NCBI GenBank assembly: GCA_017473435.1 | Contig: JAFULG010000072.1 | Coordinates: 1-61,366, forward strand | Length of the DNA: 61,366 bases | Source: Clostridia bacterium | Lineage (GTDB): Bacteria > Bacillota > Clostridia > Oscillospirales > Acutalibacteraceae | Direction of reading: 5' to 3' | In this document: positions 47,309 to 58,408 of the stretch, one piece after another | Layout: each line of letters opens with the position of its first letter | How positions within the stretch are numbered: the stretch's first letter is position 1 | Notes under the pieces: model-generated | The model's input: the letters and a program-made list of their open reading frames with translations, nothing else | The model's database searches: none | What the model was told of the DNA's origin: nothing | Program-made: the position numbers and the translations under genes

Positions 47309-48301
47309 ATGGTTATTCCTCTTAATCTCGGTTCTGACAGCTATGATATTACCCTTGAAAGAGGAGCTTTAAAAAAAGCGTCGGAGATATTTAAAATAAA
47401 GGGCAAGGTGCTTGTGGTTACTGATTCGGGGGTTCCCGCGGAGTATTCATGTGCCGTTGCAGAACAGTTTGCGCAAAGCTTTATTTATACCTTCCCCGAG
47501 GGGGAGCAAAGTAAAAATTTTGATACGTATAAAAGTATTTGCGAAAAGCTGCTTGCCTTATCTTTTACAAGAAAAGATGCGGTTATAGCTGTAGGCGGCG
47601 GCGTTACGGGTGATATGGCAGGCTTTGCGGCGGCAACCTATATGAGAGGTATTGATTTTTATAATATCCCTACAACAGTACTGTCACAGGTCGATTCATC
47701 AATCGGCGGAAAAACAGCCATTGACCTTGGAAATGTGAAAAATATTATCGGTGCTTTTCATCAGCCTAAGGGAGTTATAATTGATCCTGAGGTGCTTTTG
47801 ACTTTGCCTGAGCGTCATGTTAAAAACGGTTTAGCCGAAAGTATAAAAATGGGAATGTGCTTTGATAAGGAGCTTTTTGATTTGTTTAAAAAAGCTGACT
47901 ATATGGAGCATATCGACAGAATTATAGAGCTTTCACTCAGAATAAAAAAGCGTGTGGTGGAAGAGGACGAAAAAGAAGCAGGACTTAGAAAAAGCCTTAA
48001 TTTCGGACACACTATCGGCCACGGTATTGAGGGTGCGGTTTTCGGTGAGCTACTCCACGGTGAGTGCGTTGCTCTGGGAATTCCTCCCATGTGCGGTGAA
48101 AAAATTCGCGATGAGGTTATAAATGTGCTTGTAAATGCCGGTCTTCCCGTTGAATATATTTTTGCTAAAAGCAAGGTAAGGGAAATCATCAGCCACGATA
48201 AAAAATCCCTAGGGGATAAAATAAGCGTTGTAAAATGCGATGAAATAGGTTCATTTTATTTTGATGAAATGACAGCAGAAGATATTGTAAATCTTATTTA
48301 A
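47309..48301 (+). CDS. aroB: 3-Dehydroquinate synthase
   Basis: Second shikimate step, NAD- and metal-dependent. 330 residues. PEGEQSKNFDTY, GGGVTGDMAGFAAATYMRGI, VDSSIGGKTAIDLGNVKN, and the metal ligands in NGLAESIKMG and NFGHTIGHGIEG. ATG at 47309 with GAGGTGA upstream; that site overlaps the pheA stop codon. Operon gene. Confidence 0.96.
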   Translation: MVIPLNLGSDSYDITLERGALKKASEIFKIKGKVLVVTDSGVPAEYSCAVAEQFAQSFIYTFPEGEQSKNFDTYKSICEKLLALSFTRKDAVIAVGGGVTGDMAGFAAATYMRGIDFYNIPTTVLSQVDSSIGGKTAIDLGNVKNIIGAFHQPKGVIIDPEVLLTLPERHVKNGLAESIKMGMCFDKELFDLFKKADYMEHIDRIIELSLRIKKRVVEEDEKEAGLRKSLNFGHTIGHGIEGAVFGELLHGECVALGIPPMCGEKIRDEVINVLVNAGLPVEYIFAKSKVREIISHDKKSLGDKISVVKCDEIGSFYFDEMTAEDIVNLI

Positions 48302-54333: not shown

Positions 54334-54480
54334 ATGGATTTTATACAGAGAACTATGACTGTTTTTGATGAGCTTATTCAGCGTGTAAAGACAATAGGCG
54401 TTATGTTGACATACAATTATCTGCCTGCAACAACACAAGAGAGAGAGACGTCAGGACTTTTCTGGATTTTCAATTGGTAA
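54334..54480 (+). CDS. Small protein of 48 residues, function unknown
   Basis: Starts MDFIQRTMTVFDELIQRV and ends SGLFWIFNW. Support for being real: a good site (AGAAAGGCGG) nine to ten bases upstream, its own TTGACA promoter and no overlap with other genes. It has an amphipathic helical first half and an aromatic tail with two Trp. It is too hydrophilic for a membrane segment in the first half. I know no family. A leader peptide for attenuation is unlikely because tRNA genes follow. Confidence 0.5.
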   Translation: MDFIQRTMTVFDELIQRVKTIGVMLTYNYLPATTQERETSGLFWIFNW

Positions 54481-54514
54481 ACAGCAGAAAAAATAAAAAA
54501 GTTTTGAAAAAGTA

Positions 54515-54543
54515 TTGACAAAATCTTTTTTTTGTTGTATAGT
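54515..54543 (+). promoter_or_regulatory. Promoter of the tRNA operon
   Basis: TTGACA, 17-base spacer, TATAGT, about 35 bases before tRNA-Val. Confidence 0.8.
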
Positions 54544-54577
54544 ATACGAGTCGTCGCGAGAGCGGTGGCAAGAATGT

Positions 54578-54653
54578 GGGAGCATAGCTCAGCTGGGAGA
54601 GCATCTGCCTTACAAGCAGAGGGTCACAGGTTCGAGCCCTGTTGTTCCCACCA
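54578..54653 (+). tRNA. tRNA-Val (anticodon TAC)
   Basis: 76 bases with encoded CCA. Acceptor GGGAGCA pairs with TGTTCCC; anticodon loop CTTACAA between TCTGC and GCAGA; T-loop GTTCGAG-type. Confidence 0.97.
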
Positions 54654-54656
54654 TAT

Positions 54657-54733
54657 GGCCCGGTAGTTCAGTTGGTTAGAACGCTAGCCTGTCACGCTAG
54701 AGGTCGACGGTTCGAGCCCGTTCCGGGTCGCCA
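54657..54733 (+). tRNA. tRNA-Asp (anticodon GTC)
   Basis: 77 bases with encoded CCA. Acceptor GGCCCGG pairs with CCGGGTC (one G-U), anticodon loop CTGTCAC between CTAGC and GCTAG. Three bases after tRNA-Val. Confidence 0.97.
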
Positions 54734-54742
54734 ATTAAATAT

Positions 54743-54818
54743 GCGGATGTAGCTCATCTGGTAGAGCGCCACCTTGCCAAGGTGGAGGTAGCGAGTTCGA
54801 GCCTCGTCATCCGCTCCA
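54743..54818 (+). tRNA. tRNA-Gly (anticodon GCC)
   Basis: 76 bases with encoded CCA. Acceptor GCGGATG pairs with CATCCGC; anticodon loop TTGCCAA between CCACC and GGTGG. Confidence 0.97.
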
Positions 54819-54821
54819 TAT

Positions 54822-54896
54822 GGTACCATAGCCAAGTGGTAAGGCCACGGTCTGCAAAACCGTTATTCCCCAGTTCAAATCTGGGTGGTACCTCCA
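54822..54896 (+). tRNA. tRNA-Cys (anticodon GCA)
   Basis: 75 bases with encoded CCA. Acceptor GGTACCA pairs with TGGTACC; anticodon loop CTGCAAA between ACGGT and ACCGT. Last tRNA of the array and border of the accessory segment: its 3' end (GTACCTCCA) recurs at 56538-56546. Confidence 0.97.
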
Positions 54897-54898
54897 GA

Positions 54899-54931
54899 AA
54901 AATCCTGTTCTTCGGAACAAGATTTTTTTTA
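54899..54931 (+). terminator. UUCG-loop terminator after tRNA-Cys
   Basis: AAATCCTGTTC-TTCG-GAACAAGATTT followed by T-run. A variant with a different stem (CCTCGTTC/GAACGAGG) but the same TTCG loop follows the tRNA-like end at 56546. Confidence 0.9.
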
Positions 54932-54932
54932 T

Positions 54933-55142
54933 CCAAGCCGACAGGCTTGGTATATCATCACGCGTCAGCGTGTATATCATCAACACGGCATAGCCGTGTT
55001 GTATCTCATCACACCTTTAGGTGTGTATTTCTGTCGGCTTGAGGATATGCAATGCTTCGCATTGATGATATTCAGCTTCTTACGAAGCTGATGATATGCA
55101 ATTCCTTGCGGAATTGATGATATACAAGGCTTCGCCTTGATT
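54933..55142. repeat. Hairpin ladder, copy 1
   Basis: Eight short hairpins in 210 bp: CCAAGCC/GGCTTGG, CACGC/GCGTG, ACACGGC/GCCGTGT, CACACC/GGTGTG, AATGC/GCATT, AGCTTC/GAAGCT, AATTCC/GGAATT, AAGGC/GCCTT. The hairpins of the left half are separated by TATATCATCA or close variants, those of the right half by its reverse complement TGATGATATA. An outer stem AAGCCGACAG/CTGTCGGCTT (54935-54944 and 55031-55040) can enclose the left half. Not coding on either strand. The last hairpin runs into TTGATT, the -35 of the next promoter. Confidence 0.85.
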
Positions 55143-55165
55143 TTTTAAGGTTAAGTTGATATAAT
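55137..55165 (+). promoter_or_regulatory. Promoter of the DUF3267 gene, -35 from the ladder
   Basis: TTGATT (end of the last ladder hairpin), 17-base spacer, TATAAT with extended TGA. Confidence 0.7.
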
Positions 55166-55183
55166 GCTTTCAGAGGTGATTAT

Positions 55184-55768
55184 ATGAAATCAGTAAATAT
55201 TTTACCCGAAGGCTATAAGGAGTTTTATTCAGTTGATTTACAGAAGGACAAAAAAATGTCCCTTCTGGTTAATGGAATCGCTCTTGTTATCGGTCTGCTG
55301 ATGTTTATACCAATGAACTTTTTTGTGCCAATATCAACACTTTTCTCTATGGAAAACGGTATGGCAGAGTATATGATAAGAATGTTGTCAATTGCAGTGC
55401 TGACGGTTATTTATATGGTTCTGCATGAATTGGTGCACGGAATTTCAATGAAGCTTTGCGGTACTAAAAAAGTCAAATATGGCTTTACGGGTATGTATGC
55501 CTTTGCAGGCAGTGATGATTATTACGGTAAAAAGCCATACATTTTCATTGCTTTGGCACCGGTAGTGTTGTGGGGAATTGTCCTCGCTGTGATAAATTTC
55601 TGTGTTCCATATGAATGGATATGGGTGGTTTACTTTTTGCAGATATTCAATATCTCAGGTGCAGCAGGTGACTTTTTTGTTACAGCTAAGTTTTCAGGAT
55701 TTCCTGAAGATATTCTGGTGAAGGATCATGGAGTCGGAATGGTTGTTTATTCAAGAATTTATGAGTGA
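55184..55768 (+). CDS. DUF3267 membrane metalloprotease-like protein
   Basis: 194 residues with about four membrane segments. The third carries HELVHG, a zincin HExxH, followed by the family's aspartate and His-poor C-terminal loop; this matches DUF3267 putative zinc peptidases. Such proteins resemble site-2 proteases, but substrates are unknown. AGAGGTGA before the ATG. First gene behind the ladder next to tRNA-Cys, so likely accessory rather than core. Confidence 0.85.
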   Translation: MKSVNILPEGYKEFYSVDLQKDKKMSLLVNGIALVIGLLMFIPMNFFVPISTLFSMENGMAEYMIRMLSIAVLTVIYMVLHELVHGISMKLCGTKKVKYGFTGMYAFAGSDDYYGKKPYIFIALAPVVLWGIVLAVINFCVPYEWIWVVYFLQIFNISGAAGDFFVTAKFSGFPEDILVKDHGVGMVVYSRIYE

Positions 55769-55799
55769 ATATTTGGCTTGTTGCCATTTTAAGCTGTAA

Positions 55800-55848
55800 A
55801 CACAAAAGAAAATCCGTTCTCGTGAGAGGACGGATTCTCTTTTGTATT
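55800..55848 (+). terminator. Terminator of the DUF3267 gene
   Basis: ACAAAAGA, AAATCCGT and TCTC pair with GAGG, ACGGATT and CTCTTTTGT, followed by ATTATT; a long stem of about 20 pairs with small mismatches. Confidence 0.75.
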
Positions 55849-55948
55849 ATTCATTTTTCAATATTCATCATTCATTATTCATTTCTGCAGAACGGATTTT
55901 CAAATGAATAATGAAAAATGAAGACGCTCCGCTGATGAATAATGAATA
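55849..55948. repeat. ATTCAT/ATGAAT inverted repeat region
   Basis: Several ATTCAT units (ATTCATTTTTC, ATTCATCATTCATTATTCA) face ATGAATAATGAAAAATGAA-like units across TTTCTGCAGAACGG, giving a long imperfect palindrome. Similar intergenic palindromes are common in Firmicutes; no gene is present. Confidence 0.6.
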
Positions 55949-55973
55949 ATTGTAGGCGGGACACCCGCACCGA

Positions 55974-56002
55974 TTGTAATTTCGCATTATGTGTGATATA
56001 AT
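55974..56002 (+). promoter_or_regulatory. Promoter of the GNAT gene
   Basis: TTGTAA, 17-base spacer, TATAAT with extended TGA. Confidence 0.65.
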
Positions 56003-56035
56003 TATATCGCAAAATATGAATTTGGTGGTGCATTT

Positions 56036-56449
56036 ATGATTGAACTTGCTTCTTACAGAGATAAAAAACAGATAATAAAATCTTATTCTTATACAAAACC
56101 TTATTTAAAAAGAAAAGGTACGCTTTATGTCGATAAGATTAATGATGAATGTAGGGGGTTCGCTTTTGTTCAACAAAGAAAAATAGTCAACGAACCAAAT
56201 AAAACAGAAGATTTGATATTAGTGATTGAGGTTTTCAAAGAAGAAAATAGAAATAAAGGCATAGCAAGTGCTTTAGTACAGCACATTATAAGTGAAGCTC
56301 GACGAAATGGTAGCTATCAGATAATAGCTTACTATCAAAAGAATAATATTCCGTCACACAAACTATGGATTAAGAATAGTTTTTCAATTATAGGTGTTAA
56401 AAATTCTGTTACTCAAATAGTTAGTTGTATTGCTACATATAAAATTTAG
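56036..56449 (+). CDS. GNAT-family N-acetyltransferase
   Basis: 137 residues. The acetyl-CoA site is ENRNKGIASALV (R-x-x-G-x-A), with a strand (LILVIEVFKE) before it and the IIAYYQKNNIPSHKLWIKNSF block after it. The acceptor is unknown; GNAT proteins act on antibiotics, ribosomal proteins, toxins or small amines. Base composition is clearly more A/T-rich than in the core genes, which supports transfer. GGTGGTG before the ATG. It closes the first cassette-like segment; the tRNA-like sequence follows 72 bp later. Confidence 0.82.
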   Translation: MIELASYRDKKQIIKSYSYTKPYLKRKGTLYVDKINDECRGFAFVQQRKIVNEPNKTEDLILVIEVFKEENRNKGIASALVQHIISEARRNGSYQIIAYYQKNNIPSHKLWIKNSFSIIGVKNSVTQIVSCIATYKI

Positions 56450-56521
56450 TTTTATGTGCTTGAATTGTTTTAATTAGCTTAGTTTTTACCTTGAAATACA
56501 ATTCTAAAACTATCAATTATA

Positions 56522-56546
56522 GGTTCTAAAGTGAGACGTACCTCCA
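56522..56546 (+). repeat. tRNA-like 3' end, copy 1 (possible attachment-site remnant)
   Basis: GGTTCTAAAGTGAGACGTAC then CTCCA. Aligned without gaps to the last bases of tRNA-Cys it keeps GTTC, AAA and GTACCTCCA, that is T-loop, acceptor end and CCA. It recurs at 57686-57705 with three changes in 20 bases including the one in the T-loop position. Confidence 0.65.
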
Positions 56547-56580
56547 AAAAATCCTCGTTCTTCGGAACGAGGATTTTTTT
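56547..56580 (+). terminator. UUCG-loop terminator after the tRNA-like end
   Basis: AAATCCTCGTTC-TTCG-GAACGAGGATTT then T-run; same place and loop as the terminator after tRNA-Cys, with paired changes in the stem. Confidence 0.9.
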
Positions 56581-56582
56581 AT

Positions 56583-56767
56583 ACAAGCCGACAGGCTTGG
56601 CATATCATAACGCTTTAGCGTGTATATCATCAACACGGCATAGCCGTGTTGTATCTCATCACACCTTCAGGTGTGTATTCTGTCGGCTTGATGATATACA
56701 AAACTGCGTTTTGATGATATGCAATTCCTTACGGAATTGATGATATACAAAGGCTTTCGCCTTGATT
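56583..56767. repeat. Hairpin ladder, copy 2
   Basis: Seven hairpins in the order of copy 1 with two of the right-half hairpins replaced by one (AAAAC/GTTTT). Stems are kept while loops vary: GTCA to TTTA in the second hairpin, TTTA to TTCA in the fourth, TTGC to TTAC in AATTCC/GGAATT. Spacers again switch from TATATCATCA to TGATGATATA at the midpoint. Confidence 0.85.
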
Positions 56768-56789
56768 TTATGTAAATTTATAGTATAAT
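56762..56789 (+). promoter_or_regulatory. Promoter at the end of ladder copy 2
   Basis: TTGATT from the ladder end, 16-base spacer, TATAAT: the same arrangement as in copy 1. Confidence 0.65.
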
Positions 56790-56826
56790 CGTCACAAGGA
56801 AATGATTTTATGTATCCAAGAATTAT

Positions 56827-57153
56827 TTGCTTATATATTCGGAGCAGTTAGCAACGGATATTGAATTGCTTTGTCAAAATATTAAAGCACCGTCAAATAC
56901 ACTGTTTCAAATCCGTAAAAGTTCAAGTAGTGTTTATGTAAATATTCGTGAAGCAAATTACGTTCAGAGTAGGGCAGATATGCTTTCTAAATTTGAAATA
57001 GCACTAAAAGAGTGTAGATAAACAGAGGGTTGGTTACAACTTTTGTTTAATACTAAGTCTATTGATGAAGATACATATAAAAAGAACAGAAATCTTTGTG
57101 GCAGAACAAGAAGAATGTTAATTGCAAGTTGTAAAACTCTTAAAGATAAATAA
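56827..57153 (+). pseudogene. Four-helix bundle protein (23S rRNA intervening-sequence type), broken
   Basis: The frame gives LIYSEQLATDIELLCQNI, SSSSVYVNIREANYVQSRAD and LSKFEIALKEC, the typical S23/four-helix-bundle sequence, then meets TAA at 57019-57021. Reading on in the same frame gives the expected rest (TEGWLQLLF, SIDEDTYKK, to KTLKDK) and a second stop at 57151. No ATG with a ribosome binding site lies in frame at the 5' end either. So a nonsense change and a lost start disabled the gene. Family members often sit near rRNA or mobile elements and their role is unclear. Confidence 0.75.
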
Positions 57154-57170
57154 AAAGGAGTGTTATATGT

Positions 57171-57683
57171 ATGAACAACAAAACTAAAAAGCGTACAAAA
57201 AACATTATAATTTTCCTTGTTGTTTTAATTTGCGGAGCGTTAGCTATTTATGGTGCGATTATTGGTTTGTTTTCTTATTTAGACAGTAGCGTTGAACCAA
57301 GCAAATCTGAGTTGCTTCTAACTTCTATGGGTGAATTTACCACAGAAGAACATTATAGGTATGGTAGGTGGCAAGATGGTGCCACCTACTCAAAATATGC
57401 ATATAAATCTGCCGATTTAAACAATGAATATTTAACCCGAATTACAGAAAATGATATGGGTCAAATTAAACATAATATTTCTAAGTTTGAATTCTGGGTT
57501 TCATCATCCGGTGAAGATGAAAAGGATAAATCACTTTATGAAAATTATGATTTTGACGTATCGATAATTGATATAAATGATTATTGGTTTATTGAATATG
57601 ACGAAGTAGATGATAGAGATTTTGATTTGTTTATCTTTGATACAGAAACAAATATATTATACGGATTTTATTATTCAATTTAA
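57171..57683 (+). CDS. Membrane-anchored hypothetical protein
   Basis: 170 residues: a basic start, one hydrophobic segment (about 11-34, NIIIFLVVLICGALAIYG), and an acidic, aromatic-rich outer domain (WQDGATYSKYAYK, YDFDVSIIDINDYWFIEYDE). I do not recognise it. AAAAGGAG before the ATG. A/T-rich like the GNAT gene. It ends three bases before the second tRNA-like repeat (57686), so it is the last cargo of the second cassette-like segment. Confidence 0.65.
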   Translation: MNNKTKKRTKNIIIFLVVLICGALAIYGAIIGLFSYLDSSVEPSKSELLLTSMGEFTTEEHYRYGRWQDGATYSKYAYKSADLNNEYLTRITENDMGQIKHNISKFEFWVSSSGEDEKDKSLYENYDFDVSIIDINDYWFIEYDEVDDRDFDLFIFDTETNILYGFYYSI

Positions 57684-57685
57684 AC

Positions 57686-57705
57686 GGTTCCAAAATGAGA
57701 CGTAC
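57686..57705 (+). repeat. tRNA-like 3' end, copy 2
   Basis: GGTTCCAAAATGAGACGTAC, matching 56522-56541 at 18 of 20 positions. It lacks the following CTCCA. With the earlier copy it flanks a segment of about 1.15 kb in direct orientation. Confidence 0.6.
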
Positions 57706-57709
57706 TGAA

Positions 57710-57747
57710 AAAAACAAAGGACTTCAATAGAAGTCCTTTGTTTTTTG
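57710..57747 (+). terminator. Terminator closing the accessory segment
   Basis: AAAAACAAAGGACTTC pairs with GAAGTCCTTTGTTTTT around AATA. Confidence 0.9.
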
Positions 57748-57897
57748 CTGTGTCCGCAAGACATAAATTAGTGCATTTATTATAATCGTCAGAAATACCG
57801 AAATAATTATTGTTAGCGGTACTATAATTTCAGTGTAACGAAAATATTTCTGAGGTATTGCTTTATTGCCGAAAAATATATTTATTTTTCTTGAATC

Positions 57898-57926
57898 TTT
57901 ACTTTTTTATTCGGCTGGTATATAAT
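57898..57926 (+). promoter_or_regulatory. Promoter of the Lrp-type regulator
   Basis: TTTACT, 17-base spacer, TATAAT. Confidence 0.55.
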
Positions 57927-57952: not shown

Positions 57953-58408
57953 ATGGACAAAATCGATTACGAAATTCTTTCGTGTCTGAAAGAAAATGCC
58001 CGTGAAAATGCGACTAATATCGGTGCTAAAATCAATCTTTCAACCTCAGCGGTTATAGAAAGAATAAAAAAGTTTGAAGCATCAGGGCTTATTAAACAGT
58101 ATACAATAGTGTTAGACCAACAGACTCTCGGCGGCGAGCTTATGGCTTTTATAAGTGTACGCCTTGAGCACCCGAAGTATTATGAAAATTTTGTTGAACT
58201 GATAAATTCACACAATTCAATAGCAGAGTGCTATTATATAGCCGGTGACTTTGATTTTATAATAAAGATTATCACAAAAAATGCACAAAGCCTTGAGGAT
58301 ATTCTGAATTATATCAAATCAATTGAAGGTGTTTCTCTTACGAGAACATCAGTTGTGCTCTCAACGAATAAAAATGAAGTTTGCATGCTTCCTGAAATAA
58401 GTAAATAA
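57953..58408 (+). CDS. Lrp/AsnC-family transcriptional regulator
   Basis: 151 residues: N-terminal helix-turn-helix (IDYEILSCLKENARENATNI, STSAVIERIKKFEASG, ending in the IKQYTIVLDQ link) and a C-terminal RAM ligand domain (VEL...SIAECYYIAGDFDFIIKI). Such regulators sense amino acids. It lies 56 bp before pntAA in the same direction, so it may control the transhydrogenase operon or be its first gene; this is inferred from position only. Confidence 0.92.
   Translation: MDKIDYEILSCLKENARENATNIGAKINLSTSAVIERIKKFEASGLIKQYTIVLDQQTLGGELMAFISVRLEHPKYYENFVELINSHNSIAECYYIAGDFDFIIKIITKNAQSLEDILNYIKSIEGVSLTRTSVVLSTNKNEVCMLPEISK

What the first reader, a model, noticed from the sequence alone, without database searches (positions are those of the whole stretch)
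54897..57705. Cassette-like accessory segments stacked behind tRNA-Cys
Seen: tRNA-Cys ends in GTACCTCCA, then UUCG terminator, hairpin ladder, promoter, DUF3267 and GNAT genes. At 56522-56546 a tRNA-like end with the same GTACCTCCA appears, followed again by a UUCG terminator, ladder, promoter and accessory genes, closed by another tRNA-like end at 57686. Known: tRNA 3' ends are common integration sites. Inference: modules of [terminator-ladder-promoter-cargo-tRNA-like end] are added one after another at a tRNA, in the manner of gene cassettes. No integrase is encoded here, so it would act in trans. Cargo is A/T-rich and partly decayed.
Basis: partly seen in the sequence, partly recalled or inferred. 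Interest (0 to 1): 0.75.

Follow-up and report, generated by a model that had tools for sequence, protein, structure and literature searches.

The report
Mobile gene cassettes stacked behind tRNAs
In a group of animal-gut bacteria, small packages made of a DNA hairpin ladder, a promoter and one or two genes sit exactly behind tRNA genes and pile up there, which looks like a way of collecting spare genes that is not an integron.

Summary
Behind tRNA-Cys lie three modules, not two: hairpin, ladder, promoter-like site, gene(s), tail. The third carries a decayed gene of the 23S-rRNA-IVP four-helix-bundle family (4HB).

Ladders form many families with different separator words but one design. In a capped sample, 65 of 122 ladder starts lie within 80 bp of an intact tRNA 3' end (30 tRNA/anticodon types); none was found by an opposite-strand tRNA 3' end or in front of a tRNA. 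Of 88 scored 4HB genes, 21 lie 176-280 bp behind a tRNA, each with a ladder between.

At tRNA-Arg-CCG one genome holds a 2,515-bp module exactly between CCA and the A-tract that follows CCA in two relatives: one filled/empty site pair. One tail motif was found 15 times, always before an A-tract, 12 times within 26 bp of a stop codon.

So cassette-like modules added at tRNA ends are supported. 'Closed by a tRNA-like end' is true only sometimes. Reverse transcriptase and RAYT do not track the ladders; no integron integrase passes its cut-off. The enzyme is not identified; a recombinase in trans is my best guess.

The parts
54822..54896 (+). tRNA-Cys (GCA), anchor of the array
   Evidence: ARAGORN
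54897..54931 (+). module 1: terminator-like UUCG hairpin right behind CCA
   Evidence: sequence
54932..55143 (+). module 1: hairpin ladder, TATATCATCA / TGATGATATA separators
55137..55165 (+). module 1: promoter-like site; its -35 box TTGATT is the ladder's last step
   Evidence: consensus scan
55184..55768 (+). module 1 cargo: DUF3267 gene
   Evidence: PF11667
55778..55803 (+). module 1 tail (F7): TTGTTGCCATTTTAAGCTGTAAACAC, 9 bp behind the stop codon
55804..55955 (+). module 2: hairpin and ladder of another family (TATTCAT)
   Evidence: compare L320
56036..56449 (+). module 2 cargo: GNAT gene (promoter-like site 55974-56002)
   Evidence: PF00583
56522..56546 (+). module 2 tail (F8): GGTTCTAAAGTGAGAC + GTACCTCCA (same last 9 nt as tRNA-Cys)
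56547..56580 (+). module 3: UUCG hairpin
56581..56768 (+). module 3: hairpin ladder (TATATCATCA family)
56762..56789 (+). module 3: promoter-like site, -35 box at the ladder end
   Evidence: consensus scan
56812..57153 (+). module 3: decayed four-helix-bundle gene (23S_rRNA_IVP family)
57171..57683 (+). module 3 cargo: 170-aa ORF without a Pfam match over its cut-off
57686..57706 (+). module 3 tail: arm GGTTCCAAAATGAGAC, then GTACTGA (not a tRNA end)
57704..57751 (+). next hairpin, without a ladder behind it
   Evidence: inverted repeat I5

Best explanation
The segment is an array of three small mobile modules anchored at the 3' end of tRNA-Cys. A module consists of a terminator-like hairpin, a ladder of hairpins (a separator word several times, then its reverse complement several times), a promoter whose -35 box is the last step of the ladder, sometimes a four-helix-bundle gene, one or two small accessory genes, and a tail motif close behind the last stop codon. 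Shown: ladders sit directly behind tRNA CCA in one orientation; in one case a whole module lies between CCA and the A-tract that follows CCA in relatives; modules stack. Inferred: a module is joined at the boundary CCA / A-tract by a site-specific recombinase, most likely a tyrosine recombinase of a resident element acting in trans, so that the newest module lies next to the tRNA and is read from its own promoter. Guess: the ladder works as folded DNA (cruciform or single strand) that marks the module or is bound by the 4HB protein.
For: 65 of 122 ladder starts within 80 bp of a tRNA 3' end, 30 types (capped sample, not made non-redundant). Orientation: 70 ladder-tRNA pairs within 150 bp on the right side, 0 within 450 bp of an opposite-strand 3' end, 0 upstream (a tRNA cluster can count twice). 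21 of 88 scored 4HB genes lie 176-280 bp behind a tRNA, all with ladder score 2 or more. Units at different tRNAs align from 4-5 bp before the tRNA end to the 4HB stop or 3-10 bp short of it: 83.8% over 592 bp and 81.5% over 617 bp. Filled/empty site: 2,515-bp module; joined flanks align in 234 of 301 columns with each of two relatives. Tail F7: 15 of 15 before A4 or more, 12 of 15 within 26 bp of a stop codon, 12 of 15 before a hairpin. Stacks in 20 of 117 loci. Att-like inverted arms with a near copy of the tRNA tail around a 5-kb element in G015.
Against: Only one clean filled/empty pair, from draft MAGs. No recombinase was linked to the modules. A cognate tRNA tail is found in only 6 of 37 loci. 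57 of 122 ladder starts are not within 80 bp of a tRNA called by ARAGORN, and some ladders with 4HB follow protein genes. Two locus pairs break at the ladder end, not at the module end. In the window's ladder family an intact 4HB is the first ORF in only 7 of 101 modules (read by eye). The stop-codon distances have no control.
Confidence: 0.6

Rival explanations
1. Ordinary tandem accretion of integrase-dependent islands and their remnants (IME/CIME type) at tRNA genes; the ladder is an old resident of tRNA 3' flanks that is carried along.
For: tRNA-tail copies right before ladder modules next to what I read by eye as integrase frames (L145, L153); tail copies with inserts of some 140-510 bp; 6 of 37 loci with a cognate tail; inverted arms in G015; PF00589 in 58 of 59 genomes.
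Against: The one dated insertion (G011) has no tRNA-tail copy but tail F7; 31 of 37 loci lack a tail copy beyond controls; one ladder design is shared by 30 tRNA types, while an integrase usually has one site (general knowledge).
Confidence: 0.2
2. The ladder, with or without 4HB, is a REP/MITE-like palindromic repeat that inserts behind terminators; what follows is just host DNA, not cargo.
For: Ladder-only copies and ladders before genes that look like housekeeping ones by eye; ladders with 4HB behind rplL and a ValS-like gene, named by eye; the hairpin left of the ladder looks like a terminator; most 12-copy pairs align from about the T-run to the 4HB stop and no further.
Against: No Y1 transposase in G007, G033, G058, which have 17, 20 and 9 ladder matches; reverse transcriptase in only 13 of 59 genomes and missing there too; the G011 insertion contains ORF and tail as one piece; cargo recurs behind different tRNAs in a few cases.
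Confidence: 0.12
3. The ladder is an RNA element or insulator of tRNA transcription units, spread by homologous recombination between copies.
For: It follows the tRNA hairpin; RNA fold z -8.41; homology breaks at the ladder 3' end in two locus pairs; a first, crude mismatch count gave 15 G-T against 4 C-A.
Against: A stricter count of internal stem mismatches in 234 distinct hairpins gave 10 G-T against 9 A-C, other families 2 against 1; the promoter-like site lies downstream of the ladder; in window 54400-57900 no Rfam family but tRNA reaches its gathering score; the G011 insertion has no ladder on its far side.
Confidence: 0.06

Closest known systems
Tandem ssrA-specific genomic islands of Dehalococcoides (PMC3146451, passages seen)
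   Same: Modules stacked behind a tmRNA gene; accessory cargo; some islands lack an integration module and are discussed there as possible cis-mobilizable elements.
   Different: There one site, a 20-bp repeat of ssrA at each border and a serine recombinase in 16 islands; here 30 tRNA types, mostly no tail repeat, no recombinase found, small modules with a hairpin ladder.
Integron gene cassettes (recalled)
   Same: Small modules, a tail right behind the ORF, stacking on one side, accessory cargo such as GNAT, Nudix, ASCH.
   Different: No integron integrase over its cut-off in 59 genomes; modules have their own promoter-like site and a ladder at the 5' side; anchor is a tRNA gene.
23S rRNA intervening sequences with the S23/IVP ORF (PMC4990558, passages seen)
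   Same: Same protein family (PF05635/TIGR02436); structured DNA plus a small 4HB ORF; presumed selfish.
   Different: Located behind tRNA genes and not inside rRNA; ladder and promoter; carries further genes.
REP/BIME elements with RAYT transposase (recalled)
   Same: Mosaics of short palindromes in many copies.
   Different: Ordered design (word, then its complement), strict tRNA polarity, no Y1 transposase in three ladder-rich genomes.

Membership tests
Integron | integron integrase IntI | tested here: not met
   TIGR02249: 0 of 59 genomes over the curated cut-off; 58 have weaker tyrosine-recombinase matches. An in-trans IntI of a species not searched is not excluded.
Integron | attC site: palindromic tail behind each ORF | tested here: inconclusive
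   A recurring tail lies behind the ORF, but no attC model was run; by eye the tail alone is not a palindrome.
IME/CIME accretion at tRNA genes | direct repeat of the tRNA 3' end at both borders | tested here: not met
   Met in 6 of 37 loci only; the window has a 9-nt repeat that 3 of 28 controls equal. Not met as a general feature.
IME/CIME accretion at tRNA genes | mobilisation by a neighbour's integrase | not testable with these tools
   Integrase-like frames stand beside two tail copies (L145, L153, by eye); function needs an experiment.
REP/BIME (RAYT-mobilised) | RAYT (Y1 transposase) in the same genome | tested here: not met
   PF01797 in 33 of 59 genomes but in none of G003, G007, G011, G018, G033, G058, all with ladder matches.
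23S rRNA intervening sequence | IVP/S23 four-helix-bundle ORF | tested here: met
   PF05635 and TIGR02436 over cut-off; decayed in the window.
23S rRNA intervening sequence | position inside a 23S rRNA gene | tested here: not met
   Units sit behind tRNA genes or other genes.
Retroelement | reverse transcriptase in the genome | tested here: not met
   RVT_1 in 13 of 59 genomes, absent from G007, G015, G033, G058.

The most novel reading that the evidence does not exclude
A separate cassette system: many tRNA genes of one bacterial order serve as platforms for small cassettes that are recognised through a multi-hairpin DNA ladder and a four-helix-bundle (S23/IVP) protein and joined at CCA / A-tract, without integron integrase, reverse transcriptase or RAYT. 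It would give the S23/IVP family a working role outside rRNA.
Probability: 0.35. Interest if true: 0.88.

Novelty: new variant of a known kind. Interest (0 to 1): 0.77.

Why it matters
tRNA genes are known docking sites for large islands with their own integrase. Here docking looks routine, small-scale and spread over at least 30 tRNA types, so it may be a main road by which these gut bacteria gain accessory genes. It also ties the S23/IVP four-helix-bundle proteins, known from rRNA insertions and described as without known function (PMC4990558), to a mobile unit with sharp ends, which makes an old question testable. My ten searches of open-access papers listed no description of it; most subscription papers and preprints are not in that library.

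Tried and rejected
RAYT/REP mobility: rejected. Mobility by a resident reverse transcriptase: no support. Integron: no IntI over cut-off. RNA element: no Rfam family but tRNA over its gathering score in window 54400-57900; G-U bias seen in a crude count (15 vs 4) vanished in a stricter one (10 vs 9). tRNA-tail copy as general right end: 6 of 37. T-loop motif GTTCNAA as general right end: 11 of 51 non-tRNA module starts against 120 of 5,000 control windows, enriched but a minority, and some of the 11 are plain tRNA-end copies. Viral vector: 3 viral contigs hold the ladder pattern, no tRNA in the stretches held; not followed further. The 4HB-tRNA link outside the order: 0 of 28 loci (27 outside the order) has a tRNA within 900 bp upstream; two weak ladder scores (L361, L379) look like other repeats. 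An exact pattern in the own genome found 0. A blastn of the joined flanks printed nothing and was replaced by a pairwise alignment. The generic ladder finder is not sensitive: 32 of 117 ladder-bearing loci got no call.
Full report
What is there. The window is contig C63 of a 2.56-Mb draft genome, G000. tRNA-Val, Asp, Gly and Cys stand at 54578-54896. Behind the CCA of tRNA-Cys lie three modules. Module 1: UUCG hairpin, ladder 54932-55143, promoter-like site 55137-55165, DUF3267 gene, tail TTGTTGCCATTTTAAGCTGTAAACAC (F7) at 55778-55803. Module 2: hairpin and a ladder of another family (55804-55955), promoter-like site, GNAT gene, tail GGTTCTAAAGTGAGAC-GTACCTCCA (F8) at 56522-56546. Module 3: hairpin, ladder, promoter-like site, a decayed 4HB gene, a 170-aa ORF, a tail at 57686, then one more hairpin.

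The ladder. A separator word stands between hairpins in the left half and its reverse complement in the right half; the first hairpin's 5' arm can also pair with the middle. In the TATATCATCA family the order word-then-complement holds in 88 of 91 ladders that could be parsed (of 104 tried); 81 of 166 left and 118 of 141 right segments are hairpins, against 8 and 10 when shuffled. 234 distinct hairpins were counted, so stems change while pairing stays. Other families use other words in the same order: TGTAATCA, AATGATG, AATGAAG, GTGATGC, ATGAAGC, GTGAAGT, TATTCAT, TTATATT, GTGATGT, CTTCATT, ATGATAT, ATGAAAT, TGAAATC. A finder for this order gave 110 calls in 845,666 bases of 117 loci and none in shuffles; those loci were chosen for a ladder, so this is no genome rate, and 32 of them got no call. 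In the own genome 7 of 34 tRNA genes have score 3 downstream; two of these are upstream neighbours in a cluster whose last gene carries the ladder. Upstream controls scored 0 or 1; 8 of 340 shuffles reached 2, none 3.

Position. The 80 rows shown are all MAGs labelled Clostridia, Oscillospiraceae or relatives. 65 of 122 starts lie within 80 bp of an intact tRNA 3' end, 30 tRNA/anticodon types. One follows the tmRNA gene (L083, by eye). Within 150 bp there are 70 same-strand ladder-tRNA pairs (a cluster can count twice), none within 450 bp of an opposite-strand 3' end and none within 450 bp upstream of a tRNA. Of the rest, several follow copies of tRNA ends, two of them beside frames that I read as integrases, others recurring tails; some follow neither.

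Relatives. Of 59 genomes searched (own included) 19 match this ladder. At tRNA-Cys none of the 22 other loci printed has it; L192 and L209 have ladders of other families with a 4HB gene or its remains, and L195 and L207 what looks like an integrase frame by eye. The Lrp gene to the right of the array was not found in any of the 20 other same-genus genomes searched.

The 4HB gene. PF05635 occurs in 47 of 59 genomes. 21 of 88 lie 176-280 bp behind a tRNA (14 anticodons), all with ladder score 2 or more; of the 67 others 8 reach 2, by eye six true ladders, one beside a tRNA-end remnant and one probably chance; shuffles reached 2 in 5 of 880. In a phylum-wide sample 4HB matches occur in 29 of 249 genomes; none of 28 loci, 27 outside the order, has a tRNA upstream. 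Among 154 modules, 20 of them picked for a 4HB, the 4HB forms the one large cluster of ORFs (35, some held twice). In the window's family an intact 4HB is the first ORF in 7 of 101 modules by eye. A profile of 22 4HB proteins finds the solved chains 2rld and 2gsc.

Limits of the units. Units at different tRNAs align from 4-5 bp before the end of the tRNA to the 4HB stop: L281 (Leu) and L288 (Tyr) 83.8% over 592 bp, ending at the stop; L317 (Leu) and L319 (Thr) 81.5% over 617 bp, ending 3 and 10 bp short (most other pairs align only inside the gene). Most pairs of twelve copies of the window's family, the decayed one included, align from the hairpin or T-run to about the 4HB stop. Different cargo follows. 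Related cargo recurs behind other tRNAs or ladder families in a few cases.

Filled and empty site. tRNA-Arg-CCG is the same locus in five genomes by upstream similarity. Similarity ends within 10 bp of CCA in 6 of 10 pairs, about 35 bp later in two, at the ladder end in one (G032-G011), and runs through a 170-bp hairpin element in one (G000-G007). In G007 and G000 CCA is followed by an A-tract and that element. In G011 a 2,515-bp module (hairpin, ladder, a 653-aa ORF, tail F7) lies between CCA and the same element. With the module left out, G011 aligns through the junction with both relatives, 234 of 301 columns each. Few bases are shared at the joint (an A-tract, perhaps CA), so the crossover cannot be named more closely. 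The module next to the tRNA is here the newer one. In G032 two modules stand in tandem with nearly the same hairpin.

Tails. F7 was found 15 times in the loci held, always before A4 or more, 12 times within 26 bp of the end of an open frame of 55 codons or more (no control was run), 12 times before a hairpin, 8 times before a ladder by score. F8-like tails end in GTACCTCCA in the window and G025, with another arm in G002; G015 has a 5-kb element with inverted arms at both ends and a near copy of the tRNA tail. That is the anatomy of tyrosine-recombinase sites (general knowledge). But only 6 of 37 loci show a cognate tRNA tail beyond non-cognate controls, so this is not the rule for ladder modules.

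Mechanism. I favour recombination in trans at CCA/A-tract. A strict count of stem mismatches gives no sign of RNA pairing (10 G-T, 9 A-C; others 2 and 1), though a cruder one did (15 and 4). Reverse transcriptase and RAYT do not track the ladders; IntI is 0 of 59 over cut-off. What ladder and 4HB protein do is not shown. S23p of Xanthomonas is a pentameric torus, the family has no known function, and it has been proposed that the IVS ORF served mobility (PMC4990558, passages). Against a simple model: two locus pairs break at the ladder end, and some ladders stand before genes that look like housekeeping ones by eye.

Known systems. The nearest published case I saw is the stack of islands behind ssrA in Dehalococcoides (PMC3146451, passages); nearest in economy are integron cassettes (recalled). 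Neither fits on membership. Of papers I saw passages of PMC4990558, PMC3936711 (23S_rRNA_IVP genes in cas loci) and PMC3146451; the rest in search listings only.

Noticed in passing
L075, L079, L081, L129, L163, L172, L173, L184; G000, G007, G011 at tRNA-Arg-CCG: Small inserts (some 140-510 bp between the tRNA and the ladder start; about 170 bp at tRNA-Arg-CCG) between a tRNA and a second copy of its 3' end; several hold an inverted T-arm-like GGGATTCGAAC.
   Followed up: partly
L328 (G033), L330 (G006), L031 (G000 tRNA-Gln): Elements with an inverted arm right behind tRNA-Cys or tRNA-Gln; G006 and G033 carry ParB-like genes, by eye, and G006 tandem small pilin-like ORFs. The left ends behind tRNA-Cys of G006 and tRNA-Gln of G000 are nearly identical.
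   Followed up: partly
L327 (G015): 5-kb element at tRNA-Cys with inverted arms and a near copy of the tRNA tail, holding a TetR-like, a ubiquitin-like and two large surface-protein-like ORFs (by eye).
   Followed up: no
L257, L271, L273: Ladder plus 4HB units behind protein genes (rplL, a ValS-like gene; by eye), word TTTTATTC.
   Followed up: no
window 57953-58408: Lrp-type regulator right of the array, not found in 20 of 20 other same-genus genomes searched.
   Followed up: no
window 47752-47989: A further weak ladder-like call (word GCTTTT).
   Followed up: no
L183, L184, G033:C17, G000:C4: A P-loop kinase-like cargo gene (AAA_33 just under its cut-off) recurs in modules at different places (G000:C4 by eye).
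   Followed up: partly
G015:C23, G032:C53: Contig lengths 121,722 and 16,858 equal those of SVOY01000006.1 (Oscillospiraceae SIG577) and SVPD01000041.1 (SIG582), so the window's genus probably lies among these MAGs.
   Followed up: no
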